From the NCBI GenBank assembly GCA_949498985.1, contig CATECQ010000002.1, positions 1-56,429 on the forward strand: 56,429 nt of DNA, written 5' to 3'. The notes under the pieces are model-generated. The model was not told where the DNA came from. It saw nothing but the letters and a program-made list of their open reading frames with translations, and did not search any database. This stretch comes from Glaciecola sp. HTCC2999. GTDB lineage: Bacteria; Pseudomonadota; Gammaproteobacteria; Enterobacterales; Alteromonadaceae. Below, one piece after another: positions 23,073 to 44,113 of this stretch (positions within the stretch are counted from its first letter, which is position 1; every line of letters begins with the position of its first letter). The translations under genes and the position numbers were made by a program.

Positions 23073-23081
23073 GTAATTCTC

Positions 23082-27031: not shown

Positions 27032-28819
27032 ATGTTAAATAAAGGTAAAGCAAAAGCTCTTTCTTTATCAATGTTAGTATCTCTTGCATTGGCTGGTACA
27101 GCACATGCACAGGTTACTGATAATGATATTGTAAACGATCATCTAACCACCAATGAAGTTGTGACCAATGGTCTTGGCCTTCATGGTCAGCGTTATAGTA
27201 CGTTAGATACAATTAATACTAAAACGGTTGAAGATATCCGTCCTGTTTGGGCATTCTCATTAGGTGGTGAAAAGCAGCGTGGTCAAGAATCACAACCAAT
27301 GATTAAAGATGGTGTGATGTATGTCACGGGTTCTTACTCTCGTGTGTTTGCAATTGATGCACGTACAGGTAAAGAATTATGGCAATACGAAGCACGTTTA
27401 CCCGATGGAATTATGCCTTGTTGTGACGTAATAAACCGAGGTGTAGCTTTATATGGTGATCTAGTTATTTTTGGTACGCTTGATGCGAAGTTAGTAGCGT
27501 TAAATAAAGATACCGGTAAAGTCGTATGGAAGAAGAAAGTTGAAGACTACAAAGCGGGTTATTCAATTTCAGCAGCCCCCATTGTAGTTAAAGGCAAAGT
27601 CATCACCGGTGTCGCGGGTGGTGAATTTGGAATTGTAGGTAAAGTGCGTGCATACGATGCGAGCAATGGTAAGTTAGTTTGGGAACGTCCAACTGTTGAA
27701 GGCCATATGGGTTATATCGTCAAAGACGGTAAAAAAGTTGAAAATGGTATCTCAGGTGGTGCTCCCGGTAAAACTTGGCCAGCTGACTTATGGAAATCCG
27801 GTGGCGCAGCGCCATGGTTAGGTGGCACATATGATGCTGATACTGATTCTTTATTTTTCGGTACAGGTAACCCAGCACCATGGAACTCTCACTTACGTCC
27901 AGGTGATAACTATTTCTCAGCCTCACGTTTAGCAATTGACCCTGATACAGGTAAAATCAAATGGCATTTCCAAACTACCCCGCATGATGGATGGGATTAT
28001 GATGGCGTAAACGAAGTTGTATCATTTGATTATCAAGAACAAGGCAAAACGGTTAAAGCCGCTGCAACGGCTGACCGAAATGGTTTTTTCTATGTCTTGA
28101 ATCGTGAAAATGGTGATTTTATTCGTGGATTCCCATTTGTTGATAAAATCACATGGGCCAAAGGCTTAAATGCAGACGGTTCACCAATCTATAACGAACC
28201 TAATCGCCCAGGTAACCCTGCAAGTTCTAGTGATGGCAAAAAAGGTCAGGCAGTTGTTACAGCACCTTCATTCTTAGGCGGTAAAAACTGGATGCCGATG
28301 GCATTTAGCCAAGATACTGGATTATTCTATGTCCCAACCAATGAGTGGGAAATGGAAATTTGGAATGAACCTACTGCATATAAAAAAGGCGCCGCTTATT
28401 TAGGTGCTGGATTTACAATCAAAGCCCTTAAAGAGGATTATATCGGTGTACTTCGAGCGATTGATCCAAAAACGGGTGAGACAGTTTGGCGTTATAATAA
28501 TTATGCACCTTTATGGGGTGGTGTATTAGCCACTGCGGGTAACTTAGTATTTACAGGTAACCCAGAAGGTTATTTAATTGCCTTTGATGCGAAAACAGGT
28601 GAAGAACTTTATAAGTTTAATACAGGTTCAGGTATCGTTGGTTCTCCTGTTACATGGGAGATGGACGGCGAACAGTATATCTCTGTTTTATCTGGATGGG
28701 GTGGTGCAGTTCCATTATGGGGCGGTGACGTTGCTAAACGTGTGAAAGACCTTAACCAAGGTGGTAGCGTTTGGACTTTCAAACTACCTAAAAAGTTTGC
28801 TAACTTAGCTCGAAACTAA
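27032..28819 (+). CDS. pedH: PQQ-dependent alcohol dehydrogenase, lanthanide type (PedH/ExaF-like)
   Basis: A 595-aa periplasmic quinoprotein with an eight-bladed propeller, oxidising primary alcohols to aldehydes with PQQ and a bound metal. A signal peptide ends near AHA. Adjacent Cys130-Cys131 (PCCDVI) form the ring that shields PQQ. The catalytic region reads [13 protein letters not shown]: Asp322 is the catalytic base and Asp324, two residues later, is the extra ligand found in lanthanide-dependent enzymes (DYD), where Ca-dependent MxaF has Ala. GAGGA lies seven bases before the ATG at 27032 and only one before an ATG at 27026, so 27032 is the likely start. No calcium-type paralogue is present in the window. 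Confidence 0.93.
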
Positions 28820-28932: not shown

Positions 28933-28947
28933 CCTCCCAAAGTAGGA
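28933..28947 (+). promoter_or_regulatory. Island motif copy before the aldehyde dehydrogenase
   Basis: CCTCCCAAAGTAGGA, the reference copy of the recurring motif. It lies about 160 bases before the aldehyde dehydrogenase start and downstream of the dehydrogenase terminator, so it belongs to the promoter region of the next gene. Confidence 0.5.
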
Positions 28948-29048: not shown

Positions 29049-29105
29049 GTTTTATTAGGTTGTCCATCTATCCACAGCCTATCAATAACGATAACCGAGG
29101 TGTTT

Positions 29106-30626
29106 ATGATCTATGCAAATCCAGGGAGTGAAGGCTCTATATTTTCTTTTAAGGCGAAGTACGATAACTATATTGGTGGTGAATGGGTTGCCCCTGTAAA
29201 AGGTGATTACTTTACTAATACAACCTCAGTCGACGGAAGTGATATCTGTCAAATTGCTCGTTCAAGCGCTGAAGATATTGAACTTGCATTAGATGCGGCA
29301 CATGCAGCGAGAGATGCTTGGGGTAGAACGTCAGTAACTGAACGTTCAAATATGTTATTGAAAATTGCAGACCGTATTGAAGCCAATCTTGAAGTGCTTG
29401 CCGTTGCTGAAACTTGGGATAACGGAAAACCCATTCGTGAAACATTAAATGCCGATGTTCCACTATGTGTTGACCATTTCCGCTATTATGCTGGTTGTAT
29501 TCGTGCTCAAGAAGGTCACATGTCTGAAATTGATGAGAATACGGTGGCCTATCATTTCCATGAGCCTATGGGTGTAGTAGGGCAAATCATTCCTTGGAAT
29601 TTCCCGTTATTAATGGCTGCTTGGAAGCTTGCGCCAGCTCTTGCGGCAGGTAATACCATTGTTCTCAAACCTGCTGAACAAACCCCAGCAAGTATTATGG
29701 TGTTATTAGAAATCATTGGTGATTTGATCCCTGCAGGTGTATTAAATGTGGTGAATGGTTTTGGTAAAGAAGCGGGTGAAGCTTTAGCTACATCGACTCG
29801 AATTGCTAAAATTGCATTTACTGGTTCTACGCCAGTGGGTGAGCATATTCTAAAATGTGCTGCAGAGAACTTAATTCCGTCTACAGTTGAATTAGGTGGG
29901 AAATCACCTAATATTTTCTTCGAAGATATTATGAATCAAGAAGACGCATTCATTGATAAATGCGCTGAAGGATTTGTATTAGGTTACTTTAACCAAGGTG
30001 AAGTATGTACCTGTCCATCTCGTGCATTAATTCAAGAAAGTATCTATGACCAATTTATGGAACGTGTTTTAGCTAAAACTAAAGCGATTGTTCGCGGCAA
30101 CCCACTTGATACTGATGTAATGGTGGGAGCTCAAGCATCAGGTCAGCAATATGAAAAAATCCTTTCTTATATTGATATTGGCCGTGGTGAAGGTGCTGAA
30201 ATAGTCACTGGTGGTGAAAAAGAATCATTAAATGATGATTTGGATTCAGGTTTCTATGTTCAGCCAACCATTTTAAAAGGTGATAACACCATGCGAGTCT
30301 TCCAAGAAGAAATTTTTGGTCCTGTTATCGCAGTAACAACGTTTAAAACAGAAGAAGAGGCATTAGCTATTGCTAATGATAGTCAGTTCGGTTTAGGCGC
30401 AGGTTTATGGACACGTGATACTAACCGTTCTTACCGTGTAGGACGTAAGATTGAAGCAGGTCGCGTATGGACTAATTGTTATCACCTATATCCAGCTCAT
30501 GCTGCCTTTGGTGGTTACAAGAAGTCTGGTATTGGGCGTGAAACGCATAAGATGATGCTTGATCATTACCAACAAACTAAGAATTTATTAGTCAGCTATG
30601 ACATAAATCCACTTGGTTTCTTCTAA
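29106..30626 (+). CDS. Aldehyde dehydrogenase (ExaC/AldB type)
   Basis: A 506-aa NAD(P)-dependent aldehyde dehydrogenase. The general base is Glu262 in VELGGKSPN and the nucleophile is Cys301 in [11 protein letters not shown]. The NADH-binding region [19 protein letters not shown] is typical. The extra Cys after the nucleophile (CTC) is characteristic of the ExaC/AldB group that follows alcohol oxidation. The protein should convert the aldehyde made by the quinoprotein to acid in the cytoplasm. GAGG five bases upstream supports the ATG at 29106 over a GTG at 29100. It has its own terminator. Confidence 0.94.
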
Positions 30627-30727: not shown

Positions 30728-32863
30728 ATGCGTATATTCGCAATCACAATCAAATTATGTGCATGGATAATATTCTTTGGTGTCTTTTTTACTCAACATC
30801 CTGTTGATGCTAAAGAAGGCGATGTGACTGATATACCTACTGCGATTGAAGAAATTTTTCCCACCGCCACACGTATTGGTGAACCTGAACCCGATATTCC
30901 CGTTATTCCAATTTACCAACTTAATGAATTATTAGGTTACGCATTTGAAAGCCAACACTTTGCAAATTTCATGGGATTTTCAGGAGAGCCGATAAATATC
31001 TTAATTGGTCTTGATGCCAAAGGGGTAATACTGGGATTAAAAGTAATTAAACACAATGAACCTATATTTTTGCATGGTTTGGGTGAAAAACCTTTTTTTG
31101 AGTTTGTGGATCAATACAAAAACCATTCAGTACGTGAACGATATATTATTGGTAGTGATGAGAGAAACTCTCCCAACGCAACTTATTTTGATGGTATTAC
31201 GCGTGCAACCGTGTCGGTGTTAGTAGTGAATGACACCATAGTGACATCGGCATTAAAAGTGGCTCGCGCCAAATTAGATGGATTTGTTGCACCGAGTAAC
31301 AAGATTCTTAAACCTGAAGCAGATATATTTGAAACTCTTAGTTTTGTCGAATTAATGGATAGGGGACTGATCACCCATTGGCAAATGTCTCGTGCTGATA
31401 TTGATAATAATAGCGACATTACGAGTGAAGTTAGAGAGGCAATAAATCAAATAGAAGAAAAAAGTGAATATTTTATTGATATGTATATGGCCTTTATCAA
31501 TATTCCACTGGTTGGTAAAAATTTGCTGGGGGAAGCTGAATTTGCCCGTTTACAAGAAAACCTGAAACCAGGTGAACATGCACTATTAATGCTCAGTAAA
31601 GGGGATTACTCCTATGTGAATGACGAATTTGTACCACAAACTCCGCCTTCTCATTTATCATTATCGCAAAGTGGATTTCCTACCGACATTCGTGATATTG
31701 ATTTTTATAGTTTTTATGAACCTGAATTTGTTACTGATTTACCCATTTATAATGATATTCATATATTGCGATTAAAATCTCAATCCGGTTTTGAACTGAG
31801 TCGAGAGATGACTTTAGGAATGGGTATTAATTACAAGGCATCTTTCTTTGACATACAACAACATATATTTCCATATTCTGTTACCTTACCCGATTCTTTA
31901 TTTATGCTTAACCCGGATGCGATGGCTGCTAAACCAATGCCATTGTGGATGCGAATATGGCTAGACCGAACTTGGATCATTGCCGTTACCTGCCTTTATC
32001 TCATGATCTTAACGGTACTATTTGTCAAACAAACTTCTCTTGTCAAACATGAACAGGTAACTCATTGGGTGAGGGGAGTATCATTAGTTTTTGTTTTATT
32101 TTTTATTGGATTCTATGCCCAAGGACAATTGTCGGTAGTCAATATTTACACTTTGTTTTTAGCTTTATATAACGGTTTTAAGATAGAGGTCTTCTTACTC
32201 GATCCTGTGATATTTATATTATGGGTGTATGTTTTCGTTAGTTTATTCTTATTTGGACGAGGCCTATATTGTGGATGGTTATGCCCTTTTGGTGCGCTTC
32301 AGGAATTTGCTGGAGTTTTAGCTAAAAAGCTCTCCATCAAACAAATTAAAATTAAACCTCAATATCATCGCATTGGTCAGTCTATCAAATATGTGATTTT
32401 AGTTGGGTTAGTTGGGAGTGCCTTCTTTTCATTGAATATCGCAGAACAACTGGCTGAAGTTGAACCGTTCAAAACTTCCATTACTTTACACTTTGTCAGA
32501 ACATGGCCATTTGTCGTTTACGCAGTGTTATTATTATTGCTGAGCATGAAAATTCATAAAGTTTATTGCCGTTACCTTTGTCCATTAGGTGCCGGATTAG
32601 CCGTATTGGGCCGTTTCCCGATATTTAAATGGCTCAGACGAAGGGATGAATGTGGGTCACCTTGTCAACTTTGTAAAACAAAAAAATGTGAAATTGATGC
32701 CATTAAATCTACTGGTGAAATTGATTATGGAGAATGTATTCAGTGCCTTGAATGCGTTGTAACCATTGAAAATCCAGAAATTTGTGTGATTGATAAATAC
32801 AAAGATAAAAAACGGGGTACTAGACGTGCAAGTTCAGAGGTTATTACAGTAAAACCCATTTAA
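30728..32863 (+). CDS. NosR/NirI-like FMN and iron-sulfur membrane protein
   Basis: A 711-aa membrane protein with a signal peptide and a periplasmic FMN-binding domain (about 90-180) whose FGDxxT-like site reads DGITRATVSV. After an inter-domain stretch come about six helices (about 415-630) with polyferredoxin motifs CGWLCPFGALQE and CRYLCPLGAG. A C-terminal double [4Fe-4S] region follows (CGSPCQLCKTKKC and CIQCLEC). This is the layout of NosR/NirI flavoproteins, which move electrons across the membrane and are needed for reductase activity. No nitrous oxide or nitrite reductase genes are in the window, so its role here is open; it sits between the aldehyde dehydrogenase and the sensor genes. 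Confidence 0.85.
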   Translation: MRIFAITIKLCAWIIFFGVFFTQHPVDAKEGDVTDIPTAIEEIFPTATRIGEPEPDIPVIPIYQLNELLGYAFESQHFANFMGFSGEPINILIGLDAKGVILGLKVIKHNEPIFLHGLGEKPFFEFVDQYKNHSVRERYIIGSDERNSPNATYFDGITRATVSVLVVNDTIVTSALKVARAKLDGFVAPSNKILKPEADIFETLSFVELMDRGLITHWQMSRADIDNNSDITSEVREAINQIEEKSEYFIDMYMAFINIPLVGKNLLGEAEFARLQENLKPGEHALLMLSKGDYSYVNDEFVPQTPPSHLSLSQSGFPTDIRDIDFYSFYEPEFVTDLPIYNDIHILRLKSQSGFELSREMTLGMGINYKASFFDIQQHIFPYSVTLPDSLFMLNPDAMAAKPMPLWMRIWLDRTWIIAVTCLYLMILTVLFVKQTSLVKHEQVTHWVRGVSLVFVLFFIGFYAQGQLSVVNIYTLFLALYNGFKIEVFLLDPVIFILWVYVFVSLFLFGRGLYCGWLCPFGALQEFAGVLAKKLSIKQIKIKPQYHRIGQSIKYVILVGLVGSAFFSLNIAEQLAEVEPFKTSITLHFVRTWPFVVYAVLLLLLSMKIHKVYCRYLCPLGAGLAVLGRFPIFKWLRRRDECGSPCQLCKTKKCEIDAIKSTGEIDYGECIQCLECVVTIENPEICVIDKYKDKKRGTRRASSEVITVKPI

Positions 32864-32949: not shown

Positions 32950-34092
32950 ATGTCTATCAGTACTACTGCTATCAGCCATGCCAGCGATCCTCACATTGCG
33001 TGTTTAGAGTTAAAGGCTCAATTAGACTTAAATCAAGTCAGTACACTCATTTTTTATTGTTCGTCTTCCTATGAATTAGATGCGCTTGCTTTTAATATAA
33101 ATCAACATTTCCCAGATAATGAATGTGTCGGTTGCACAACAGCTGGTGAGTTTGCTTTTGAAGGTTATGAGACGAATACCATTGTCGTAGTCGCTTATCA
33201 CGATAGTCATTTTGCGATTCAAACCACACTGGTTGAAAATCTAACTTCGTTTGACTTACTAGATGCTCAACAGATCATGAATACGCTGAAAAAAGAAATG
33301 GCCCCTAAAGCAATTGCCCCATTGGATTCACAAAGTTTTTTATTTTCTCTTGTAGATGGATTAGCAGCTAAAGAAGAAGAGTTTTTGATTACATTTGATA
33401 GTTGCAGTGCTGGTTTACCCCATTTTGGAGGTTCTGCAGGGGATGGATTAAATCTAAATAAAACGTATGTGTTCTATAATGGTAAGTTCAGACATTCAGC
33501 TGCCATTATCATGTTAATCAATACCGTACAAAAATTTTCAGTATTTTCGGTGAATCATGTTAAAGATTCATTGAGTAAATTAGTCGTCACTGATGCTGAT
33601 CCAAATACGCGACAAGTATTTGAAATTAATGGTGAACCTGCAGCAACTGTATATGCTGATTTATTAGGTTTAGAGGTTAACGATTTAGAGCATGAAGTAT
33701 TTTCTCTTCATCCAGTCGCAGTAAAAATTGCGGGTCAATATTATATTCGTTCAATCCAACGAGTGAATAAAGATTTTTATTCCTTGTCATTTTACTGTGC
33801 TGTAGATATTGGTATTGTTTTAAATGAAGTTGATTTACTGGATATTAATGCCCCTTTGTTAAAAAAGCTCGAAAGTATAAAGAATCACTTAGGTGAACCT
33901 CATGTAGTGATGGGCTGTGATTGTTTTTTAAGGCGCTTAGAAGTGGCATCAAAAGACCAAAGTTTAGAAACACAACACATTCAACAACAATATAAGCTTG
34001 TTGGTTTTAACGCATATGGTGAACACATTAATGGTATGCATTTAAACCAAACATTTACTGGTGTTTACATTAGTCAGGAACATTATGAGTAA
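32950..34092 (+). CDS. FIST-domain sensory protein
   Basis: A 380-aa cytoplasmic protein made of an N-terminal FIST domain and a FIST_C domain (about 230-370). FIST domains are thought to sense small ligands, perhaps amino acids, and are usually paired with signal transduction proteins. No ribosome site is seen before the ATG at 32950; TTTGATCAAA directly precedes it. The gene overlaps the downstream histidine kinase by eight bases, so the FIST protein may present a ligand signal to that kinase. This arrangement is reminiscent of the ErcS' region in P. aeruginosa ethanol-oxidation control; the comparison is from memory. Confidence 0.86.
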   Translation: MSISTTAISHASDPHIACLELKAQLDLNQVSTLIFYCSSSYELDALAFNINQHFPDNECVGCTTAGEFAFEGYETNTIVVVAYHDSHFAIQTTLVENLTSFDLLDAQQIMNTLKKEMAPKAIAPLDSQSFLFSLVDGLAAKEEEFLITFDSCSAGLPHFGGSAGDGLNLNKTYVFYNGKFRHSAAIIMLINTVQKFSVFSVNHVKDSLSKLVVTDADPNTRQVFEINGEPAATVYADLLGLEVNDLEHEVFSLHPVAVKIAGQYYIRSIQRVNKDFYSLSFYCAVDIGIVLNEVDLLDINAPLLKKLESIKNHLGEPHVVMGCDCFLRRLEVASKDQSLETQHIQQQYKLVGFNAYGEHINGMHLNQTFTGVYISQEHYE

Positions 34093-36625
34093 CTCAAAGC
34101 CCGAAGAACAGCTTAGTCCTCAAGCGGAAATTGCGGCGCTGAAGTTAAAAAACGAGCGTTTGCAAAAAATTAACGATGCGTTAATTTTTAGAATAGAAGA
34201 AGGACCGGGTAATAATGCTGCTTACTCTGCATTTGAAAATTCAGTGCATTTAGCACTTCAAGTTAATTTGAAAACACATGAACTTAATGATGCTTTAGCT
34301 AAATTGCAAGGCCTTAATACACAGTTATCTCAAGCTAACCAAGAAGCCAATTTATTTCGTCAACGCTTCGTTGATGCCATTGAAAGTATTTCTGAAGCCT
34401 TTGTTTTACTTGATGATCAAGGAAATATAATTTACCAAAATTCCAATTTCAAACAGTTATGGCAACAAACCGAACTCAACTCTTTAGTTGGCTCAAATTA
34501 TTATGAACTTAAAGCTCTCGGTAAATTAAAAGGGATTATATTGAGTGTCACTCCTAACAGTGACAACAATAATTCGGTTTATCATTTTAGTAATAACCGT
34601 TGGTATCAGCTTAATGAGAAGCGTATCCAAGATGGAGGTATGGTCTTATTATTTACAGATATTACCCACATTAAACATGCAGAATCTCAACGGTACGAAC
34701 TGGCAATAGCGCAAAAGAATAAATTACTCCAAAACCTAATTGATAACCTTTCTCAAGGTGTATTACTACTTAATAAAAACAACGCCCCAGAAGTATGGAA
34801 TGCCAAATTTGAACAGTTTTGTGAGTTATCACATGAAAGTATTCAAAATGTCTCTGAATTACATGAATTTAATACTATTACTGAAGTATTTTTATATCCC
34901 TCACGTGAATTAAATTTTCATATACAGGAACTCAGTAATGGCAAAGTCATTGACGTACGTCGACATTTTGTCAGTGATGGACAAAGTATTATTACGTTAT
35001 CTGATATTACAGAACAACACCAATATGAACAGTCTATACGCGAAAGTGAAAATTGGATTAGAACGATCACCGATAACGTACCAGCGATGATTGCCTATGT
35101 GAACAAACAAAAACAATTTATGTTCACTAATAAAGTTTATAACCAGTGGTATGGTGATCAAAATCACGATTTAGTTGGTCAAGATCTTGAGGAAAGTAAT
35201 TTATTTGAAGATTGGGAACGCATTTCCGTGTTTGTTAATCGTGCGCTTGACGGTGAAATGGTTTCATTTGAAAGTAAAGAAACTAGTGTTAATGGTCGAG
35301 TGAGTTATTTACAAAAGTCTTATGTGCCTAATATCAATAGTAATGGTACGGTCGATGGATTTTTTGTGTTAGTCAACGATATTACCGACCGAATTCGTGC
35401 ATCACAAGCATTACAAAGTGCTAATTTTGAACTTGAAGAACGAGTGCAAATTCGAACTAGAGCACTAGAAAATGAAATAGAAAGTCGCAAACACACTCAA
35501 GCACGTTTATCTGAAGCTATCATTTCAGCTAAAGAAGCTACAGAATCTAAATCAAAATTTTTAGCTGCGGTGTCGCATGATTTATTACAACCTCTTAATG
35601 CTGCACAACTATTTTCGGCTTCATTGCTCGGGAGTTTAGACGCATCAGAGAAACCATTACTTAATTCAATTAAAAGCTCATTAAATGATTTAGAAAATCT
35701 GATTGTTACGTTAGTGGATATTTCAAAATTAGATGCAGGATTAATTAAACCTGATGTCCAAGTATTCCCACTAAATTCATTGTTATCTAATATTGCTGCA
35801 GATTATGAAAAAATATCACTCCTTCATGATATTGAATTTTCGTTCGTCCCTACACAGTTGTATGTGAAATCCGACAGTTTATTGCTGGCACGAATTTTAC
35901 GAAATTATTTATCTAATGCGATCCGTTACGCTCGTGGAGGGAAGGTCACATTAGGTTGTCGTCGACGGGATAATTATGTAGAAATTCAAGTATTAGATTC
36001 AGGTGAAGGTATTGCAAAGGATGACTTACAAGAAATATTTAAAGAGTTTAAACGGCTAAAGGGTGCTGTCCAAGCACAACAAAGCCTGGGATTAGGATTA
36101 GCCATTGTTGATAAGATGGCTAAAGTACTAGAACATGATATTAATGTGCAATCACAACTCGGACGGGGTTCTTGTTTTTCGGTAAGTTTACCCATTGTGA
36201 ATGCGTCACAATATCACGAACATTCAGTAACTGAAGCTTCAGAACCTCAAATGCTTAACGCGGCTAAAATTTGGGTTGTTGATAATGATCCTAAGATATG
36301 CCATGCGATGGAAGTATTACTCAACATGTGGGATTGTGATGTCACCGTTGCCACATCATTAGATGTATTAAAAGATAGTATTGATATAACGCAAGCTCCC
36401 TGTGACATTTTGATTATAGACTATCACCTTGATCATGAACAGACAGGTATTATGGTCAGCAATACGATAACTAAGCTAAGACAAGACCCTATACCGACTA
36501 TTATGATATCGGCTAACTATTCTCAAACACTTCAAGAAGAGTGCAAACGGACAAATATTGTTTTATTAAACAAACCCGTTAAACCACTAAAATTACGTAT
36601 GATCATGCAGCAATGTTTAGGCTAG
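34085..36625 (+). CDS. Hybrid sensor histidine kinase (ErcS'/NahK-like)
   Basis: An 846-aa cytoplasmic kinase without membrane segments. An N-terminal coiled coil is followed by three PAS domains (about 100-190, 215-310, 325-440), a second coiled coil, a HisKA domain with His498 in VSHDLLQPLNA, and an ATPase domain with NAIRYA, DSGEGI and LGLGLAIV. A C-terminal receiver domain has Asp779 in IIDYHLD. The DLLQPLNA H-box is typical of the NahK/ErcS' group. AGGAA four bases upstream supports the ATG at 34085. It faces the LuxR-type response regulator across nine bases, and the two probably form the pair that controls alcohol oxidation. Confidence 0.88.
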   Translation: MSNSKPEEQLSPQAEIAALKLKNERLQKINDALIFRIEEGPGNNAAYSAFENSVHLALQVNLKTHELNDALAKLQGLNTQLSQANQEANLFRQRFVDAIESISEAFVLLDDQGNIIYQNSNFKQLWQQTELNSLVGSNYYELKALGKLKGIILSVTPNSDNNNSVYHFSNNRWYQLNEKRIQDGGMVLLFTDITHIKHAESQRYELAIAQKNKLLQNLIDNLSQGVLLLNKNNAPEVWNAKFEQFCELSHESIQNVSELHEFNTITEVFLYPSRELNFHIQELSNGKVIDVRRHFVSDGQSIITLSDITEQHQYEQSIRESENWIRTITDNVPAMIAYVNKQKQFMFTNKVYNQWYGDQNHDLVGQDLEESNLFEDWERISVFVNRALDGEMVSFESKETSVNGRVSYLQKSYVPNINSNGTVDGFFVLVNDITDRIRASQALQSANFELEERVQIRTRALENEIESRKHTQARLSEAIISAKEATESKSKFLAAVSHDLLQPLNAAQLFSASLLGSLDASEKPLLNSIKSSLNDLENLIVTLVDISKLDAGLIKPDVQVFPLNSLLSNIAADYEKISLLHDIEFSFVPTQLYVKSDSLLLARILRNYLSNAIRYARGGKVTLGCRRRDNYVEIQVLDSGEGIAKDDLQEIFKEFKRLKGAVQAQQSLGLGLAIVDKMAKVLEHDINVQSQLGRGSCFSVSLPIVNASQYHEHSVTEASEPQMLNAAKIWVVDNDPKICHAMEVLLNMWDCDVTVATSLDVLKDSIDITQAPCDILIIDYHLDHEQTGIMVSNTITKLRQDPIPTIMISANYSQTLQEECKRTNIVLLNKPVKPLKLRMIMQQCLG

Positions 36626-36634: not shown

Positions 36635-37300
36635 CTAACGTTTTAAATAATGGTCGAAGTCAATGTTTGCACTACCCACAACCACTTTAACCCGATTAGA
36701 TGCGCCGAGTTTCTTGAGAATGGATGAAACATGAGATTTAACAGTCGTTTCAGAAATATTCATTTCATAGGCAATATATTTATTCGCTTCACCTTGAGTT
36801 AAATATTTTAAAACCATTAACTCTTTACGCGTTAACAACTGCATTTTCTCCGGCAATATTTCAAAATCTTTATTACCCGCGGTATTTTGGGGTGTGATTG
36901 GTGCACGGATTAAATCTGATGGTAAGCATACATTACCATTAAAAATAGACTCTAAAGAGTTAGTAATAGTATCAACAGATGATGATTTAGAAATAAAACC
37001 TACTGCACCATATGAAATAGTTTGTAATATTTGTTGTTTTTCATTTTCTGCAGATACAATAACAACGGGCAGGTTAGGGTGTTCGTTCCTCAGTTCTAAT
37101 AAACCATTTAAACCAGATGTACTTGGCATATTTAAATCGAGCAGAACTAAGTCGATATCATCGTGTTGTGTTATTTGCGATTTAGCGGCCTCAATAGAAT
37201 CGGCTTCAAGACATGCTGAGCCGGTAAACTTATCCGCAATTATACCAGTAATTGCTTGTCTAAAAATAGGGTGATCGTCAACAACTAATAACTTATACAT
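36635..37300 (-). CDS. LuxR/NarL-type response regulator (ErbR/AgmR/PedR1-like)
   Basis: A 221-aa response regulator. The receiver domain starts YKLLVVDDHPIFRQ and has the phosphoacceptor Asp55 in LVLLDLNMPS. The C-terminal LuxR-type helix-turn-helix reads LTRKELMVLKYLTQGEANK then SETTVKSHVSSILKKL. I chose the ATG at 37300 because the receiver begins there; the longer frame would add 19 residues with no homology. The group includes AgmR/ErbR/PedR1, activators of PQQ alcohol dehydrogenase genes. It is the best candidate to bind the recurrent motif in this island. Confidence 0.87.
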   Translation of the reverse strand: MYKLLVVDDHPIFRQAITGIIADKFTGSACLEADSIEAAKSQITQHDDIDLVLLDLNMPSTSGLNGLLELRNEHPNLPVVIVSAENEKQQILQTISYGAVGFISKSSSVDTITNSLESIFNGNVCLPSDLIRAPITPQNTAGNKDFEILPEKMQLLTRKELMVLKYLTQGEANKYIAYEMNISETTVKSHVSSILKKLGASNRVKVVVGSANIDFDHYLKR

Positions 37301-37395
37301 AACATCACTCTCACAGTTTAATAACAGGTCTGATGATAGCATAATTAAATTCCTCACAGTGTTATTTAATAGCTAAAATTCATAGTTAATATAAA

Positions 37396-37479: not shown

Positions 37480-38640
37480 TTAGAATGTAACGACCGTACC
37501 GATAGAGAAGGTACCATTATCTTCTGCAACACTGCTTACTGAGTTCTCAGATTCTGTATTGTTATACTCTGCGACTAAAATTACGCCTGGACGAACAGTA
37601 CGGAAATAACCGAGTGCGAAGTTAGAGTGTTTTGTAACACCTGCATCTGGAGCAACTTTATCGAGATTTTCTGTCTCACCTGATGAGATTACAAAACGAT
37701 TATCGCCCATTGTGTATGATGCTTGTAATAAATACCCTTCAGATTCATTTGACTCTGCACCAACGACATGGTCAAGTCCAGCCACATGGCCTAAACCTTC
37801 TGATGAATAACCCGATGCAGTTAATGATATTCCAGAGAACTTAACATTAACACCATAGCCTAAGCCAGATTGATCTTGCTCAACACCTTCAACTTCACTT
37901 GATTGAGAAACGCCGTTTAGCCATACTTTAGCATCAACGCTATCCATTGAAGCTGCATATATAGCTTCAAACTCAACACGTGGAGTATCTTCTGAAGATC
38001 CTGCTGCCGCTTTATTTGGATCCATGATACCAATAGCTAAGCTTAAGCCATTCATATCATTAGTGCGGTAAGTGATTTGAGATTTAGGAAACGGATAAGA
38101 ATAACCGGTAGAAATATTACCGAATGACACATTACCACCATCAACCAAACCAAATGTATCAGATGTTTGACCATAGCCAAGTAATAATTCATCGCCAAGG
38201 ATGTTAGTACGGTTAAATAAACCAAAATCTTTACCTAACGTTAAAGATCCCCAATCACCTGATAATTTTGCATAGAATTGACGTACATCAATTAGAGAGT
38301 TCGTTCCAAGGGCATTCGCTCCACGGTTTAAATCGGTATCATTAACACTGACCCAAAATGATGAACGTACTTCTATTTTCATATCATCTAATTGTTTGCC
38401 ATAGCCAAACCCAATGTTATTAGGTAAGAAACCCATTTTGACACGTGACTGATCACGACTAGTAGTGACACCATCAGCATTCGTTGCATCAATGCTTGAA
38501 TTGACATAAAAGATATTAATTAAACCATCAGCAGTAAAAGTAGTATCGTCGTTGCTATAAATTTCAACAGCAGCGTTAGCAGCAGTAGAACTTGCTAAAA
38601 TAGCTGTAGCGAGTAAACTTTTCGTTAAAGTATGTTTCAT
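37480..38640 (-). CDS. Outer-membrane porin (Gram-negative general porin fold)
   Basis: A 386-aa outer-membrane protein with a signal peptide ending ANA (about 23) and alternating beta-strand sequence throughout, ending in the outer-membrane insertion signal with a C-terminal Phe (FSIGTVVTF). It belongs to the 16-strand trimeric porin group, with conserved RQFYAKLSGDWGSLTLGKDFG. In this setting it may admit alcohols or other small substrates. A copy of the island motif lies about 120 bases upstream, so it is probably part of the alcohol regulon. Confidence 0.88.
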   Translation of the reverse strand: MKHTLTKSLLATAILASSTAANAAVEIYSNDDTTFTADGLINIFYVNSSIDATNADGVTTSRDQSRVKMGFLPNNIGFGYGKQLDDMKIEVRSSFWVSVNDTDLNRGANALGTNSLIDVRQFYAKLSGDWGSLTLGKDFGLFNRTNILGDELLLGYGQTSDTFGLVDGGNVSFGNISTGYSYPFPKSQITYRTNDMNGLSLAIGIMDPNKAAAGSSEDTPRVEFEAIYAASMDSVDAKVWLNGVSQSSEVEGVEQDQSGLGYGVNVKFSGISLTASGYSSEGLGHVAGLDHVVGAESNESEGYLLQASYTMGDNRFVISSGETENLDKVAPDAGVTKHSNFALGYFRTVRPGVILVAEYNNTESENSVSSVAEDNGTFSIGTVVTF

Positions 38641-38757: not shown

Positions 38758-38772
38758 TAGGACTTTGGGAGG
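38758..38772 (-). promoter_or_regulatory. Island motif copy before the porin gene
   Basis: Read on the minus strand, CCTCCCAAAGTCCTA matches CCTCCCAAAGTAGGA at 12 of 15 positions, with the CCTCCCAAAGT part intact. It lies about 120 bases before the porin start. Confidence 0.4.
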
Positions 38773-38818: not shown

Positions 38819-39544
38819 CTAAGATAAAATGCCGGATAACAAGCCTGGGTATTTTCTTAACAATCCAGTTTTCATTTGAGTAATATTTTCATCTTCAATA
38901 CTCGATGTGCGTGTTGGCTGAAACTGATGAATAACCTTTGTTGGCCGATTAGATAAAAACACAATATTATCCGCTAAATATAGGGCTTCCGATAAATCAT
39001 GCGTGACAAATAAAATGGTAGTACGGAATCTTTTTGCTAATTTCATTAACACATCACGACACTGTTTAGCTGTTGGGGCATCTAAGGAAACAAAGGGCTC
39101 ATCTAGTAATAAAATAGTAGGGTTAACAGCAAATGCACGTGCAATACTTGCGCGTCGTTGCATACCACCCGATAACGTATTAGGGAAATGATGACTATGT
39201 TCAGCTAAGCCTACATCAGCAAGTAGCTGTTTGAGGTGATCAGGTTCAACATCAGGTGACACCAATGCAATATTGTCATAAACACTCAGCCAAGGTAATA
39301 ACCGAGGCTCTTGAAAAATATAACCCAGTGTTTGTTTATCCTGATAATCTACTTTAATTGTATTTGTGAGAGGATATAGACCGGCTACACAATTAAGTAA
39401 GCTACTTTTACCACATCCAGAAGGACCAACAATGCAAACAAATTGCTGGTCGGGGATGGATAAATCAATAAAATCAATGACTATTTGCTCAGAACTAAAA
39501 CCAAATTGATTAATTGTTATTGATATTGCGTCGTTATCGTCCAC
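38819..39544 (-). CDS. ABC importer ATPase (SsuB/TauB/NrtD type)
   Basis: A protein of about 241 residues. Walker A GPSGCGKSS, Q-loop FQEPRLLPW, signature LSGGMQRRASIAR, Walker B LLLDEPFVSLD and H-loop FVTHDLSEAL are all intact. QEPRLLPW is typical of the nitrate/sulfonate/taurine group. I prefer a GTG at 39544, giving an 11-base overlap with the permease gene. A longer frame would reach 39685, but its first 47 residues have no homology. It is the last gene of the TonB receptor/ABC importer operon. Confidence 0.85.
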   Translation of the reverse strand: MDDNDAISITINQFGFSSEQIVIDFIDLSIPDQQFVCIVGPSGCGKSSLLNCVAGLYPLTNTIKVDYQDKQTLGYIFQEPRLLPWLSVYDNIALVSPDVEPDHLKQLLADVGLAEHSHHFPNTLSGGMQRRASIARAFAVNPTILLLDEPFVSLDAPTAKQCRDVLMKLAKRFRTTILFVTHDLSEALYLADNIVFLSNRPTKVIHQFQPTRTSSIEDENITQMKTGLLRKYPGLLSGILS

Positions 39545-40313
39545 GCTGTACTCGCTTATCAAAAGGTTTAAAACACAGTAGTTCGATGAAAAACACGACA
39601 CCAATAAATGCCATGGTGTAAGCAAGGATCCCGGCGATATCAAAAAACTGAAACATGCTGTGTAATGCAAAACCAACACCATCACTGCGTCCTAATAACT
39701 CGACGACAAGTACAATTTTCCATATTAATGATAATCCATTACGCGCAGCAGCTAAGAAAAAGGGATAAAGTTGAGGTAAGTATATATAACGCAAATAGCG
39801 TACCCAAGAAATTTGATAAACTTGCGCTAACTCAGTTAATTTAGGATCAGTAGTACGTGCCCCTTCGCGTAACATAACCGCAACCGTTGGGATTTTATTG
39901 ATTACTACAGCAGTAATAGCTGCCGTTTCTACTAAACCAATCCATATGTAAGAAAGGATAATCACCACTAGTGCAGGTATATTAAGTAATATGATTAACA
40001 CACTATCTGTTATCAAATTGAACCAGCCACGCGCGCCCATGAGTATGCCAATAATACTTCCTAACAACATCGCAAGTATAAAACTAATCCCAACGCGAGA
40101 GACAGTAATCAATAGATTGTTGATTAAGTCACCCTGCGTAGTATGATAAAAAAATGCTTCTAAAGTATTAATAAGCGATGGGAAATCCGGTGACGCTAAC
40201 CACATAGCGAATAATTGCCAGCCAAATAATAAACTTAAAAACACACTAATTTTAATGAGTGTAGAGTAGGGCAAGTGATTATTAATTGAAGGGGTCACTG
40301 TTGACTTAGCCAT
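39534..40313 (-). CDS. ABC importer permease (SsuC/TauC type)
   Basis: A 259-aa permease with about six helices and the conserved cytoplasmic loop for the ATPase (ARTTDPKLTELAQVYQISWVR). It fits the nitrate/sulfonate/taurine importer group. The start overlaps the binding-protein gene by 19 bases and the end overlaps the ATPase gene. The group moves many small molecules, including thiamine precursors, sulfonates and metals in complex form, so the substrate cannot be deduced from this subunit. Confidence 0.87.
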   Translation of the reverse strand: MAKSTVTPSINNHLPYSTLIKISVFLSLLFGWQLFAMWLASPDFPSLINTLEAFFYHTTQGDLINNLLITVSRVGISFILAMLLGSIIGILMGARGWFNLITDSVLIILLNIPALVVIILSYIWIGLVETAAITAVVINKIPTVAVMLREGARTTDPKLTELAQVYQISWVRYLRYIYLPQLYPFFLAAARNGLSLIWKIVLVVELLGRSDGVGFALHSMFQFFDIAGILAYTMAFIGVVFFIELLCFKPFDKRVQRGR

Positions 40314-41341
40314 ATCGGCATAGCCTCAGACCAGTAGATATTGGCATCAAATGCTGCTTTTTGACCGAGAAGATCATGACCTCCAAGACTACGATAGACA
40401 TCAAATAGTTGCTGGGTTGCATTGATTTCGTTGATGGTGAAATTGTTTAATAACGTTTCTGGATAATAAGTACGAAGACGATTAAATACGGTCTCATTTT
40501 CTGCTTTTATTAAATGAGCAATGCGGTCCCACTCTTCGGATTGTTCAGATAGGCGTTGTTTAGCACTAAATGAGGCACGTAAAAACCCCTTCAGTAATAA
40601 CGAAGACTCGGTGGCAAAATTTTCGTCAAAGACCCATCCTAATAATGGTATATCACTCTGTATCCCCAAACTAGATAACATCGTCGTTACTGGCAACACA
40701 AGCACCATGCCTGCTGCTTCTAAACGCGCATTATAATGCCAGAAATTGATACTTGAATCTAAATCGCCAGACAACATCAATCGATTAAGCAAGGGCGGTG
40801 CAGCGAATTTAACGTTTAATTGATCCGCTATATTAATGTTTTGTTGTTTAGCGTACGCTTGAAACAATAGCCAATTTTTATCAACTGAGCCTCCAGCAAT
40901 TCCAATAGAGTGTGTTTTACTATCCATTAGACTAGTAAGCGAGGTACCTTTAGTCGTATATACACCGCCAGTGGCTTTAACCGTCGGCATAATGACAAAA
41001 GGTCTACCTTGGCTACGTTGACGGCTAACCCAGAATAAGTCAGTCATAATGATATCTACTGCACCGCTTTGTAATGCCACAGCAGAAGCATTTTTACTAG
41101 CAAATGGGATGACTTCAAGTGAAAATCCATTGGCGGCATCAAGCTTATGATGCTTAATAACATTCATTTGCCAGTTAATTGTACCGAATTTTAAAACACC
41201 TACTTTCAGAATAGGAAGAGGGGTGACTGTTAAGGCTTTTGCTTGAGTTATATTGGGTGCGAGTCCATAAACGACAATACACCAAAAACTAACTAGCACA
41301 ACTGCGCATAAATCTTTGCTTAACCCTCTGCCAATCTTCAT
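40295..41341 (-). CDS. ABC importer substrate-binding protein (SsuA/NMT1 type)
   Basis: A 348-aa exported protein with a signal peptide (about 1-33) and the two-lobe NMT1/SsuA-type fold: LKVGVLKFGTINWQMNVIKH at the start of the mature part, then LQSGAVDIIMTDLFWVSRQR. It begins eight bases after the TonB receptor stop, so both are transcribed together. The receptor and this importer therefore probably carry the same ligand across the two membranes. No sulfonate or taurine metabolism genes are present nearby. Confidence 0.85.
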   Translation of the reverse strand: MKIGRGLSKDLCAVVLVSFWCIVVYGLAPNITQAKALTVTPLPILKVGVLKFGTINWQMNVIKHHKLDAANGFSLEVIPFASKNASAVALQSGAVDIIMTDLFWVSRQRSQGRPFVIMPTVKATGGVYTTKGTSLTSLMDSKTHSIGIAGGSVDKNWLLFQAYAKQQNINIADQLNVKFAAPPLLNRLMLSGDLDSSINFWHYNARLEAAGMVLVLPVTTMLSSLGIQSDIPLLGWVFDENFATESSLLLKGFLRASFSAKQRLSEQSEEWDRIAHLIKAENETVFNRLRTYYPETLLNNFTINEINATQQLFDVYRSLGGHDLLGQKAAFDANIYWSEAMPIWLSQQ

Positions 41342-41349: not shown

Positions 41350-43767
41350 TTAAAATCTAAATTGACTGTTAATCGACATCATCCGTGGATGACCCACACC
41401 AATGAAGTAGGGCGAGTCAATTTCAGGATAAATATCTTCTAACACTTCATCTGCTTCGCCATAAGTACCAAAGGTTTCATAGTCATGGTCAAATACATTA
41501 TCGACTCTGACTGAAACAGTCCATTGTGGAGTAACGTTATAGGTTGAATACACATTGAATAACCCATAACCGTCAATTTGTTTATTTTCATTCGCTTCAT
41601 CACCACGATAATACTGTTTAGAGGCATAAATAAACTGCATACCTGTCAACCAATTATCTGAAATATAATATTCGCTTGCTAATTTAAATTGATGTGCAGG
41701 CTGCCCAGGAATTGTATCGCCTGGAGATACTTCTCGATCTGGACCTAATGGGTTCATTGGGCTAAACGATGTAAAAGCCGATTCAAATGTCGCTGCTAGG
41801 TAGTTATAAGAACCACGTATTGAAAAGTTTTCAAATTGACGGGAAGCTGACAATTCAACCCCTAAGCGTTGTGTCTTGTCTATATTAATAAAATAACCAC
41901 GAGATGACGTCGTACCGGCTTGCTGAAAAATAATGTCATCTAAACTGTGAGAAGCAAACACAGTGGCATTATATTGGACTGTATCAAATTGACCTAATAG
42001 AGAAGCCTCAAGGGTACGCGTAACCACACGTTCCAGTGGTGGATCAGCAACAAAGCCGTTAGGTAAACGACATGGATCGTTTTCGTCGGCACAGCTCAAC
42101 TCGGCAGGACTAGGAACGCGAGTTGATTGAGCTAATGACACATTGAAACGTGTATTATCATCAATTTGAACATCCATACCAATAGCGGGATTCACACTGA
42201 CAAATTTATGATCGCCATCTAAAGAACCTTCACCATCCGCTAATGTATCATTCATTAGGACATGGTCCCGATTATAACGAAGTGCCATATTCAGTGTCGT
42301 TTTAGCAGATAGTTGGCTCACATTGGATACATAAAAGAATTCAGATTGAGTATCAACTAATAATCGAACCATCGCTTCAGCATCCATAATCCCAATAATT
42401 GGATTTACTGTGCGTGTATCAGTTGCTGTTTCATTTTCTAGAATACCGAAAGTCGTATCAGCAGCATAACTAATATCGCCTTTAATAATGCCACCACCAT
42501 AAATAGTCGTCGAGGGTCGATCCATGAACGTATGTTCATGGATTAATTGTGCTGTCGCCCCCATACTTTTATTTTCGGCACGTCCGGTATTATAAGTCCC
42601 ATCGACTTCATTAGGATCGATGGTTGAGATTTCACTGAAAGCTAAATCATCATAACCAACAAATTCGACCACCTCAAAATCATCAGCATCTGCTATTTCA
42701 TCGTCATCATCGTCGTCATCATCTGCGATAGCATTTACATCATCATCGTCATCATCATCCATTTCACATAATGTAATAGCGCCGTTATCCAAGGCACAAG
42801 CCCCAAAATCGCTGTCATCACCATTAATAGATGCAGTCGTATTTTCACGTGCAAACAGATTAACTACCAAATTTAATGAATCATTAATATCCGTATTGAT
42901 ATTTAATGTAACAAAATTAAGTTCGTTATTGGTTTGATCAGGATGAGTGTATACCGATGAACGAGATTCAAAAGTAGGGAGATCTACAGGAATTGCGCCA
43001 TTGCCTAGTAACTCATTATCTACATGTAATAAACTCACATCAACTTGGGTTGCACCATCTTTATAAGACAACGTTGAAAATAATTGTTTTACTTCACTAG
43101 GTGAAAAATCACGCCAGCCATCTTCTTCATATTGATTAACTAACGCATAATAAGCCCAGTTACCTTGATGACCGCCGGTTTGTAATGACCATTCTTCACG
43201 ACCATATTGTCCAGTAGAAATATTTAATTCAGTTTCATTGTAAGTAAAGCCATTTTTAGTATTGAGTGCTAACGCACCGCCTAATGTATTTTGACCAAAC
43301 ACAGGATTAGATGTTGAAAACAATACAGCATTGTCTAAGGCTTCTAATGGCACCAAATCCCAATTGACTGTATCACCGAAGGGTTCATTGACGCGAGTTC
43401 CATTTAAATATACAGATAAGCCTTGAGGCAAGCCTAATAATGGTGACGCGGTAAAACCACGATATTGGACATCAGGTTGAAATGGATTATTTTGTACATC
43501 ATTAATATTTACACTAACGAGCTGATTACGTAAAATTTCAGCGAGCGAACGGTTAGGGAGCTTATGGAGAGTAGCACTATCTAGTGTTTGAGTTTGACCA
43601 ATAATAGATCGTGTATCACTTAATTGACTTAAAGGATTTGCTCCAACAACCACAATATTCTCAATAAGAGACGTATTATCATCCTCCGCGTTTTGGTCTG
43701 ATGGACTGATTAGAGCATTCGCCTGGAAAGATAAAGCAATACAGCAGATTAAATAACTTTTTTTCAT
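41350..43767 (-). CDS. TonB-dependent receptor with Asp-rich extracellular loop
   Basis: An 805-aa outer-membrane receptor with a signal peptide, a plug domain (about 50-165; SLAEILRNQLVSVNI and NTLGGALALNT) and a 22-strand barrel ending in Phe (SINSQFRF). Residues 337-363 hold 19 acidic residues: D337-D343, D349-D356, E357, D360, D362 and D363. They lie in the region expected for an extracellular loop. This is not a usual feature of siderophore or cobalamin receptors and resembles a metal-binding loop. It is the first gene of an operon with an ABC importer and has a 13/15 copy of the island motif upstream. Ligand candidates are a lanthanide or its chelate, PQQ, or calcium. Confidence 0.9.
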   Translation of the reverse strand: MKKSYLICCIALSFQANALISPSDQNAEDDNTSLIENIVVVGANPLSQLSDTRSIIGQTQTLDSATLHKLPNRSLAEILRNQLVSVNINDVQNNPFQPDVQYRGFTASPLLGLPQGLSVYLNGTRVNEPFGDTVNWDLVPLEALDNAVLFSTSNPVFGQNTLGGALALNTKNGFTYNETELNISTGQYGREEWSLQTGGHQGNWAYYALVNQYEEDGWRDFSPSEVKQLFSTLSYKDGATQVDVSLLHVDNELLGNGAIPVDLPTFESRSSVYTHPDQTNNELNFVTLNINTDINDSLNLVVNLFARENTTASINGDDSDFGACALDNGAITLCEMDDDDDDDVNAIADDDDDDDDEIADADDFEVVEFVGYDDLAFSEISTIDPNEVDGTYNTGRAENKSMGATAQLIHEHTFMDRPSTTIYGGGIIKGDISYAADTTFGILENETATDTRTVNPIIGIMDAEAMVRLLVDTQSEFFYVSNVSQLSAKTTLNMALRYNRDHVLMNDTLADGEGSLDGDHKFVSVNPAIGMDVQIDDNTRFNVSLAQSTRVPSPAELSCADENDPCRLPNGFVADPPLERVVTRTLEASLLGQFDTVQYNATVFASHSLDDIIFQQAGTTSSRGYFINIDKTQRLGVELSASRQFENFSIRGSYNYLAATFESAFTSFSPMNPLGPDREVSPGDTIPGQPAHQFKLASEYYISDNWLTGMQFIYASKQYYRGDEANENKQIDGYGLFNVYSTYNVTPQWTVSVRVDNVFDHDYETFGTYGEADEVLEDIYPEIDSPYFIGVGHPRMMSINSQFRF
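42682..42760 (-). repeat. Low-complexity GAT/GAC codon tract (poly-Asp)
   Basis: Two runs of seven and eight Asp codons separated by VNAIA, written with a mixture of GAT and GAC codons, followed by further acidic codons. The mixed codons suggest selection for the amino acids rather than a single-codon slippage expansion. Confidence 0.85.
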
Positions 43768-44113
43768 TATTATGCTTATTCACTATAAGATTAATAAATT
43801 GTTAATGATTTGAATAATAAAGATATTTTTAGGGTAATCAAAATAGATATTTATCTATGATATGTATAAATGTGCTTTAATTTCAATGATTTAAATGAAA
43901 ATTATTAAATTAACTCCTTCTAAAGTAGGAGCTAACTATTCATAAAGAATGAGGGAATTAGCAGACAAATATTAATAAATATGTCTTTAGCAAATGATCA
44001 TGGTTAAATAGTGAGTGCTAAAGAACGTATCTTAGGCTGAACTACCGTTTAGGTCACTAATTTACGATATTATAATATAAGCCATTGATTAAGATGGCTT
44101 AATATTACAAAAA
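43768..44113. other. Intergenic region between the alcohol island and the Tn3 element
   Basis: 346 bases, very AT-rich. It contains the island motif at 43916-43930, the promoter side of the TonB receptor gene. The half next to the transposase stop should contain one end of the transposon, but I found no convincing terminal repeat. No ORF or RNA gene is seen. Confidence 0.6.
43916..43930 (+). promoter_or_regulatory. Island motif copy before the TonB receptor operon
   Basis: CCTTCTAAAGTAGGA matches CCTCCCAAAGTAGGA at 13 of 15 positions. It also forms an imperfect dyad with outer arms CTCCT and AGGAG. It lies about 150 bases upstream of the receptor start. Confidence 0.5.

What the first reader, a model, noticed from the sequence alone, without database searches (positions are those of the whole stretch)
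41350..43767. TonB receptor with an extracellular 19-of-27 acidic loop, in the lanthanide-type regulon
Residues 337-363 contain two Asp runs (7 and 8) and four more acidic residues. They sit in a barrel loop between strands and are written with mixed Asp codons. Usual TonB receptors do not have this. The gene starts an operon with an ABC importer and carries the island motif. A natural hypothesis is a new receptor that captures lanthanide ions or lanthanide complexes, analogous in role but not in sequence to LutH of methylotrophs. Calcium or PQQ uptake are alternatives.
Basis: partly seen in the sequence, partly recalled or inferred. Interest (0 to 1): 0.82.

Follow-up and report, generated by a model that had tools for sequence, protein, structure and literature searches.

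The report
LutH-type receptor with polyaspartate loop
A marine bacterium carries, beside its rare-earth-type alcohol dehydrogenase genes, an outer-membrane receptor related to lanthanide-linked LutH-type receptors but bearing a highly acidic surface loop; the loop varies between species and its job is untested.

Summary
Confirmed: the 805-aa TonB-dependent receptor (TBDT), 41350-43767 on the minus strand, has 19 acidic residues in 337-363 (runs of 7 and 8 Asp). Twenty-eight other TBDTs from the genus reach 10 at most. AlphaFold2 puts the stretch, disordered, in long loop L4, extracellular by strand parity.

It is homologous to lanmodulin-linked (lut cluster) receptors: 27-29% identity full length, and a 100/100 clade excluding PqqU. 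It lies in a ped-type Ln-alcohol-dehydrogenase island and shares a promoter motif. Among 394 order genomes, the 6 with the receptor all have the dehydrogenase, found in 9.

The loop is a lineage embellishment: 41 of 77 family sequences have inserts of 15 aa or more, all at least 48% acidic, some Glu-rich; others, also with Ln-type dehydrogenases, lack it. NGDDSD and the CADEDDPC loop are more conserved.

Caveat: the downstream ABC importer's binding protein is nearest PqqT, a PQQ binder, so Ln-PQQ or PQQ cargo is open.

Verdict: probable LutH-family Ln receptor; loop as cation antenna is a hypothesis. New variant of a known kind.

The parts
41350..43767 (-). TonB-dependent receptor, LutH clade, 805 aa
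   Evidence: Plug and barrel; model; clade with LanM-linked receptors
42679..42759 (-). codons of residues 337-363, the 19-of-27 acidic stretch in loop L4
42763..42825 (-). codons of residues 315-335, conserved NGDDSD...C...LCE segment of L4 (two Cys; a disulfide is inferred)
43916..43927 (-). regulon motif upstream of the receptor gene (1 mismatch)
40295..41341 (-). substrate-binding protein, PqqT-like
   Evidence: PDB 9b1u, E 3e-45; three PqqT entries rank first
39534..40313 (-). ABC permease (BPD_transp_1)
38819..39685 (-). ABC ATPase (start codon uncertain; the Pfam ABC_tran match begins at residue 73)
37480..38640 (-). porin (Porin_4); kind of gene like PP_2662 of the ped cluster
36635..37357 (-). 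LuxR-type response regulator
34061..36625 (+). NahK/ErcS-family hybrid histidine kinase
   Evidence: NF041832 over cut-off
32950..34092 (+). NosP (FIST domains)
30728..32863 (+). NosR-like FMN/ferredoxin membrane protein
   Evidence: 613.8 bits, below the cut-off of 1000
29100..30626 (+). aldehyde dehydrogenase (named by me from the sequence; no family search was run on it)
   Evidence: homologues near the receptor in relatives
27026..28819 (+). PQQ-dependent alcohol dehydrogenase with Ln-type motif WDYD
   Evidence: (TIGR03075, 789 bits)
21574..25377 (-). Ped/Lut-type ABC set: PQQ_ABC_bind, beta-propeller, ATPase, PedC permease
   Evidence: TIGR03861 and 03866 over cut-off; 03863 and 03864 just below
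28933..28944 (-). regulon motif upstream of the aldehyde dehydrogenase (0 mismatches)
38761..38772 (+). regulon motif upstream of the porin (1 mismatch)

Best explanation
The gene encodes a LutH-family TonB-dependent receptor of the outer membrane, apparently co-regulated with a ped-type lanthanide alcohol dehydrogenase island. It most likely imports lanthanide, probably as a soluble complex, into the periplasm, where the WDYD dehydrogenase needs it. The cargo is held by conserved acidic and Cys-bearing loops (NGDDSD in L4, CADENDPC in L7, RGDEAN in L10). The Asp stretch is a fast-evolving, disordered extracellular insertion next to NGDDSD that raises negative charge at the mouth and may gather or steer cationic Ln species. 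Shown here: homology, extracellular placement by model, co-occurrence, shared motif, acidity of the inserts. Inferred: Ln as cargo, which loops touch it, co-regulation in fact, antenna role of the loop.
For: LanM-linked receptors in regions with LutA/LutF-type genes are full-length homologues: 26.7-28.7% identity, E 1e-79 to 2e-94; profile match to the one near lanmodulin on a Methylobacterium nodulans plasmid E 4e-105, against 2e-30 for PqqU. Unrooted tree: 33-row clade 100/100, PqqU and 17 other receptors outside. LutH of M. extorquens is needed for normal La uptake in vivo (PMC7391723, passages). In 394 order genomes the receptor is in 6 and the dehydrogenase in 9, the 6 all within the 9, the window's genome counted; in the genus 9 of 10 have both and the tenth neither. 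Of 43 receptor genomes, 39 carry a dehydrogenase orthologue with Asp at the Ln position and 3 a more distant homologue with WDFDGINE. Promoter motif shared with other island operons. Inserts of 15 aa or more: 41 of 77, mean 67% acidic, 2 Lys/Arg in 1273 residues, 10 of 41 with more Glu than Asp, so charge rather than Asp as such is kept.
Against: No binding, growth or expression data. The insert is short in 36 of 77 family sequences, many in the same gene setting. Seawater Ca is near 1e-2 M and Ln near 1e-11 M (PMC11996626, passage), so a flexible Asp run would mostly hold Ca/Mg. The operon partner is PqqT-like, a PQQ binder. Fourteen of 17 LanM regions read hold no clade receptor. 21 of 75 loci show no island gene in the flank held (some flanks are short), and one Ideonella plasmid member sits beside a gene annotated as nickel transporter. 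G111 and G197 have the dehydrogenase orthologue without the receptor. The motif is rare before the dehydrogenase itself (2 of 15). No lanmodulin match in the window's genome (genome 83.5% complete).
Confidence: 0.58

Rival explanations
1. The receptor imports PQQ, free or as its metal chelate, and hands it to the PqqT-like ABC importer of the same operon; lanthanide enters only as passenger or otherwise.
For: The SBP is closest to PqqT in sequence (E 3e-45) and fold (three PqqT entries rank first); in 15 of 29 loci with the SBP in the flank it lies within 400 bp downstream of the receptor. Nearest solved receptor by fold and profile is PqqU. Some relatives lie within a few kb of pqqE (L030, L087: with ORFs I took for pqqB/pqqC) or annotated pqqABCDE (L196). 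Two of the nine genus genomes with the receptor, G003 and G006, gave no pqqC.
Against: At the position of PqqU Y99 all 60 aligned family members have Leu, and at R365 Tyr or Phe; R304 aligns mostly with Asn, with an invariant Arg two residues off. PQQ is an anion (established chemistry) and the loops are strongly acidic. The window's genome has pqqC, so it can probably make PQQ. The receptor occurs without the SBP in 11 of 43 genomes, and LanM-linked homologues sit with Lut-type ABC genes instead.
Confidence: 0.25
2. The receptor has the LutH role, but the acidic stretch has nothing to do with metal: it is a tolerated low-complexity insertion or surface charge shield (against phage, toxins or anions) at a permissive loop.
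For: Length and sequence of the stretch vary sharply between relatives, from 4 to 51 residues; it is disordered in the model; relatives with a short one keep Ln-type dehydrogenases.
Against: Long inserts are consistently acidic, with 2 Lys/Arg in 1273 residues, and 10 of 41 have more Glu than Asp; the 36 short ones are still 51% acidic. Simple Asp codon slippage would not give Glu. The insert sits right after a conserved acidic segment with two Cys in the same loop.
Confidence: 0.4
3. Calcium uptake receptor.
For: Acidic loops bind Ca2+ (general knowledge); PqqU loop 6 holds a putative Ca2+ (PMC12124388, passage).
Against: Seawater Ca near 1e-2 M (passage) makes active import needless; the linked dehydrogenase has the Ln-type motif.
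Confidence: 0.03
4. Ordinary siderophore, B12 or sulfonate/sulfate-ester receptor that sits here by chance.
For: Generic family models hit weakly (TIGR01783, TIGR01779); the ABC set resembles SsuA/TauA/nitrate families.
Against: All far below curated cut-offs; clade separate from the 14 other genus receptors sampled; tight co-occurrence with the dehydrogenase; the SBP is PqqT-like, far ahead of SsuA and TauA.
Confidence: 0.05

Closest known systems
LutH of Methylorubrum extorquens AM1 (lut cluster), represented here by LanM-linked receptors L213, L215, L227 and L198
   Same: Full-length homology, plug motif near YRGFtASPlxGxPQG, L7 motif near ELxCAxxxxPCxLPNxxxxDPPL, and (for L213, L215, L227) LutA/LutF-type ABC genes in the same region
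   Different: 27-29% identity; no lanmodulin found in this genome; acidic L4 insertion; operon partner PqqT-like; the AM1 protein itself was not compared, and equating PQQ_ABC_bind/PedC-type genes with LutA/LutF is my inference
ped cluster of Pseudomonas putida KT2440
   Same: Porin, NosP, PedS1/NahK-type kinase, LuxR-type regulator, PedA/B/C-type ABC set, Ln-type dehydrogenase, aldehyde dehydrogenase (review PMC12997753, passages)
   Different: The review says KT2440 lacks a LutH homologue and its outer-membrane route is unresolved; here a LutH-family receptor is in the island
PqqU of E. coli
   Same: Best fold match and, with YncD (the same protein), best profile match among solved chains
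   Different: Outside the clade; signature Y99 and R365 not kept; 71 bits against a cut-off of 1200
PqqT of Methylobacterium extorquens (for the SBP)
   Same: Nearest solved protein in sequence and fold
   Different: 28% identity; Y161 of PqqT aligns, by my count, with F200 here; ligand untested

Membership tests
LutH clade | TonB receptor with plug and 22-strand barrel | tested here: met
   Pfam Plug and barrel; model with 22 strands when three broken ones are merged
LutH clade | Groups with receptors encoded beside LanM, apart from other TBDTs | tested here: met
   (100/100; the tool warns that outside branches, PqqU included, are long). Proxies: L213, L215, L227 (3 of 17 LanM regions read) and L198
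LutH clade | Lut/Ped-type ABC genes in the same cluster | tested here: met
   21574-25377, about 16 kb away in the island
LutH clade | Adjacent lanmodulin | tested here: not met
   No match in G000. Not taken as disqualifying: among methane oxidisers LanM is confined to Alphaproteobacteria while LutH-like receptors are broad (PMC12482762, passages)
LutH clade | Required for Ln uptake in vivo | not testable with these tools
   Needs a mutant
LutH clade | Direct comparison with M. extorquens AM1 LutH sequence | not tested
   Sequence not at hand; LanM-linked receptors used as proxies
PqqU | Aromatic residue at Y99 | tested here: not met
   Leu in 60 of 60
PqqU | R365 | tested here: not met
   Tyr/Phe in 60 of 60 at the aligned column; the alignment is weak there
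PqqU | R304 | tested here: inconclusive
   Aligns to N309; invariant R307 two residues away
PqqU | NCBIfam NF041535 cut-off 1200 bits | tested here: not met
   71 bits
PqqT (SBP 40295-41341) | Nearest to PqqT among solved SBPs | tested here: met
PqqT (SBP 40295-41341) | Binds PQQ | not testable with these tools
   Lys of the DKNW motif (K155) is kept in 24 of 24; its equation with the K142 of PqqT named in PMC12828617 is a guess from numbering
LanA of Methylotuvimicrobium | Homology to LanA | not tested
   No LanA sequence at hand; methanotroph relatives L087, L088, L090 at 32-34% may be LanA or LutH-like

The most novel reading that the evidence does not exclude
PQQ itself is the lanthanophore: the cell releases PQQ, which chelates trace lanthanide, and this LutH-family receptor takes back the Ln-PQQ chelate, aided by a polyanionic cation antenna, then passes it to the PqqT-like importer of the same operon, so metal and cofactor are scavenged together.
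Probability: 0.13. Interest if true: 0.88.

Novelty: new variant of a known kind. Interest (0 to 1): 0.6.

Why it matters
How lanthanides cross the outer membrane outside methylotrophs is unresolved; a 2026 review says so for P. putida's ped system (PMC12997753, passages), and a 2025 ocean study says that finding REE receptors unlike those of Methylobacteriaceae is limited by the lack of characterised receptors and of a residue signature (PMC11996626 section 20). This family offers marine candidates with recognisable conserved loops (NGDDSD, the ELSCADE..PC loop), an operon tie to a PqqT-like importer, and natural pairs of species with and without the acidic insertion for testing what it does at picomolar lanthanide.

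Tried and rejected
Asp loop as the diagnostic lanthanide site: rejected, because the stretch is short in 36 of 77 family sequences, including ones whose genomes have the Asp-type dehydrogenase. PqqU membership: rejected on residues and clade, although PqqU is the best fold match. Sulfonate importer for the ABC set: set aside after PqqT ranked far above SsuA and TauA. The second TBDT lying between receptor and SBP in some relatives as a PqqU: by eye no aromatic at the Y99 place, and the tree gives no supported grouping with PqqU (deep forks weak). Searches for print on such receptors in Alteromonadales or on acidic/polyaspartate loops showed nothing relevant in what was listed: 20 of 49 listed; 1 of 1; 4 of 4; 12 of 656, none of the 12 with LutH. 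The motif in the window alone was weak (12 hits against 5.7 expected, 1 of 100 shuffles as high); the relatives made the case, but they are related and not independent. Counter-cases: G111 and G197 have the dehydrogenase orthologue without the receptor at E 1e-60 (only two receptor candidates per genome were scored), and none showed in the regions read (the G197 contig ends there). Alteromonas-type relatives L057 and L076 have a Ca-type (WDFSG) dehydrogenase near the receptor, with an Asp-type one elsewhere.
Full report
1. The observation. The ORF at 41350-43767 is on the minus strand and encodes 805 residues. Residues 337-363 hold 19 Asp/Glu, in runs of seven and eight Asp plus E357, D360, D362 and D363, with mixed GAT/GAC codons. 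Shuffling the protein 5000 times gave at most 15 acidic per 27 residues. Of the 30 loci returned for TBDTs of ten genus genomes (best Pfam scores first; longest ORF of each locus taken), 28 are not of this family and reach at most 10, with Asp runs of 3 or less; the two others are family members with 23 and 17.

2. Placement. AlphaFold2 on an alignment of 60 homologues gave mean pLDDT 85 and pTM 0.83. Residues 340-355 are below 50. They lie in the long loop between strands 298-318 and 390-414. Counting from the strand list, with three broken strands merged, there are ten turns of 2-4 residues on one side and eleven loops of 3-71 residues on the other, so this is loop L4, extracellular by parity; no coordinates were available. 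These eleven loops hold 61 acidic and 10 basic residues in 225, and 31 and 10 in 154 without L4.

3. Surroundings. Eight bases downstream begins a set of substrate-binding protein, permease and ATPase genes. The neighbourhood is a ped-type island: porin, LuxR-type regulator, NahK/ErcS-family kinase, NosP, NosR-like protein, aldehyde dehydrogenase, a PQQ alcohol dehydrogenase with WDYD, a protein with a CxxCH haem motif, and the ABC set TIGR03861/03863/03864/03866. The Pseudomonas ped review lists the same kinds of genes (PMC12997753, passages). A Tn3-family transposase lies just upstream.

4. Relatives. One scan of GTDB contigs: 202 stretches matched a pattern, 116 encode relatives, the best 80 were kept, giving 75 loci. 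The scan needed one of two peptide patterns, so it favours close relatives. The loci are mostly Glaciecola, Alteromonas, Colwellia and other Alteromonadales, with some Oceanospirillales and Thiodiazotropha; the most distant (32-34%) are methanotrophs and Betaproteobacteria. Of 75 loci, 54 hold at least one island gene in the flank held, 27 a core PQQ gene, 29 the SBP; in 15 of those 29 the SBP lies within 400 bp downstream.

5. The loop across the family. In 77 aligned sequences (the 75 loci, the window and L018) NGDDSD is kept in the marine members and in two of three methanotroph ones; the stretch after LCE varies from 4 to 51 residues. Forty-one have 15 or more residues there; all are at least 48% acidic, mean 67%, with 2 Lys/Arg in 1273 residues, and ten have more Glu than Asp. 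Thirty-six are shorter (51% acidic overall), including Glaciecola pallidula and several Colwellia members in the same island type. So the acidity is consistent, but the long insert is not essential to the family. One Glaciecola MAG has repeats of DDDDH (L085).

6. Link to lanthanide enzymes. In 394 genomes of the order, the window's own included, the receptor is found in 6 and the dehydrogenase in 9 at E 1e-60 (8 of these at 76% identity or more, one at 37%); the 6 are all among the 9. Two with the orthologue, G111 and G197, lack the receptor. In the genus, 9 of 10 have both and the tenth has neither; pqqC is in 7 of 10, missing from the tenth and from two that have the receptor. Reading the metal motif: 39 have an orthologue (60% identity or more) with WD[YF]D; three methanotrophs have a more distant homologue with WDFDGINE (XoxF-type by my recall); one MAG (L068) is unclear. 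The motif TACTTTRGGAGG (up to 2 mismatches) precedes the receptor in 38 of 74 loci (background about 5%), the aldehyde dehydrogenase in 12 of 22, the porin in 16 of 29, and PQQ_ABC_bind and cytochrome c, which share a region, in 7 of 11 and 7 of 10 (background 4-10%). It precedes the dehydrogenase in only 2 of 15, NosP in 3 of 25, the regulator in 5 of 37, NahK in 1 of 28, SBP in 1 of 29 and the propeller in 0 of 17. These loci are related, so counts are not independent.

7. What family. A plasmid receptor of Methylobacterium nodulans, one gene away from a lanmodulin (NF053806, 175 bits over a cut-off of 135), matches the family profile at E 4e-105, against 2e-30 for PqqU. I then looked for lanmodulin in 398 genomes of the phylum: 14 have a match over the cut-off, 17 matches in all. 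All 17 regions were fetched: 3 have a receptor of this kind next to lanM, in each case with PQQ_ABC_bind, propeller and PedC-type genes, which I equate with the published lut cluster; 14 show no such receptor. The three match the window receptor at 26.7-28.7% over most of its length. A tree of 51 rows puts the window family, four LanM-linked receptors, methanotroph, beta- and alphaproteobacterial members in one clade of 33 with support 100/100; PqqU and 17 other receptors fall outside. The tool warns that the outside branches are long. BLAST gives E 2e-74 to 4e-97 to the LanM-linked receptors, 4e-7 to PqqU and 8e-7 to the nearest other genus receptor. M. extorquens lutH mutants show no La deposits and leave more La in the medium (PMC7391723, passages). 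The AM1 LutH and 5GB1C LanA sequences were not at hand.

8. The PQQ alternative. The operon SBP has PqqT as nearest solved relative by sequence (E 3e-45) and by fold (9ooz, 9b1u, 9b1v rank 1-3 at 4e-27 to 2e-26, next 4e-15). A review also names 9B1V as PqqT with PQQ and Gd (PMC12828617, passages). The SBP is in 4 of 394 order genomes, all four with the dehydrogenase and three with the receptor, and in 32 of 43 receptor genomes. PqqU is the top fold match of the receptor. Against a PqqU role: Y99 aligns to Leu in 60 of 60 and R365 to Tyr/Phe; R304 is uncertain (criteria from PMC12124388, passages). That paper also models metal co-binding with PQQ in PqqU homologues with Glu at K274; here that column holds no Glu.

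9. Mechanism. Most likely the receptor is the outer-membrane gate of the island's lanthanide supply, LutH-like, with TonB energy; the Ped/Lut-type set and the dehydrogenase lie behind it. The cargo is probably a complex, since free Ln in seawater is about 1e-11 M against Ca 1e-2 M (PMC11996626, passage). The acidic insertion may raise local Ln concentration or steer complexes; Ca and Mg competition is the main objection. Loop L7 (ELSCADENDPCRLPNGFVADPPL here) and NGDDSD are the better candidates for specific contacts. All of this paragraph is inference.

10. Novelty. The receptor kind is known (LutH); what is new, as far as the listings searched show, is the marine branch inside a ped-type island, its hyperacidic and variable L4 insertion, and its operon with a PqqT-like importer. 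Wider clade members do not all lie by PQQ genes: of eight plasmid regions read (of 36 records matched), four lie by PQQ-dehydrogenase genes or lanM (L196, L197, L198, L200), three do not in the flank read (L194, L195 beside a gene annotated as nickel transporter, L201), and one (L199) is interrupted by an IS66 element.

Noticed in passing
44114-47314, minus strand: A Tn3-family transposase gene (557 bits, over the cut-off) ends about 350 bp upstream of the receptor gene, on the same strand.
   Followed up: no
L022:12571-14694, L050:12449-14623 and similar gaps in other loci: In several Glaciecola and Colwellia relatives a second, unrelated TonB receptor lies between this receptor and the PqqT-like SBP; the window lacks it.
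   Followed up: partly
L085 (Glaciecola MAG), receptor at 9932-12379: The loop has become a DDDDH repeat array, 51 residues with 37 acidic and 6 His.
   Followed up: no
L057:1674-3536, L076:7171: A Ca-type (WDFSG) PQQ dehydrogenase sits near the receptor in these Alteromonas-type records, with an Asp-type one elsewhere in the genome.
   Followed up: partly
L195 (Ideonella dechloratans plasmid), 9791-12988: A clade member lies directly before a gene annotated as nickel transporter and within about 6 kb of genes annotated as methanobactin export and copper binding, which may mean another metal cargo in part of the clade.
   Followed up: no
L216-L221: In six genomes lanmodulin, a PQQ dehydrogenase homologue (40-42%) and the PqqT-like SBP lie within about 7 kb of each other.
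   Followed up: no
L229 (G111:C34): A genome with the dehydrogenase island and the PqqT-like ABC set but no LutH-family receptor in the region read; its outer-membrane route is unknown.
   Followed up: partly
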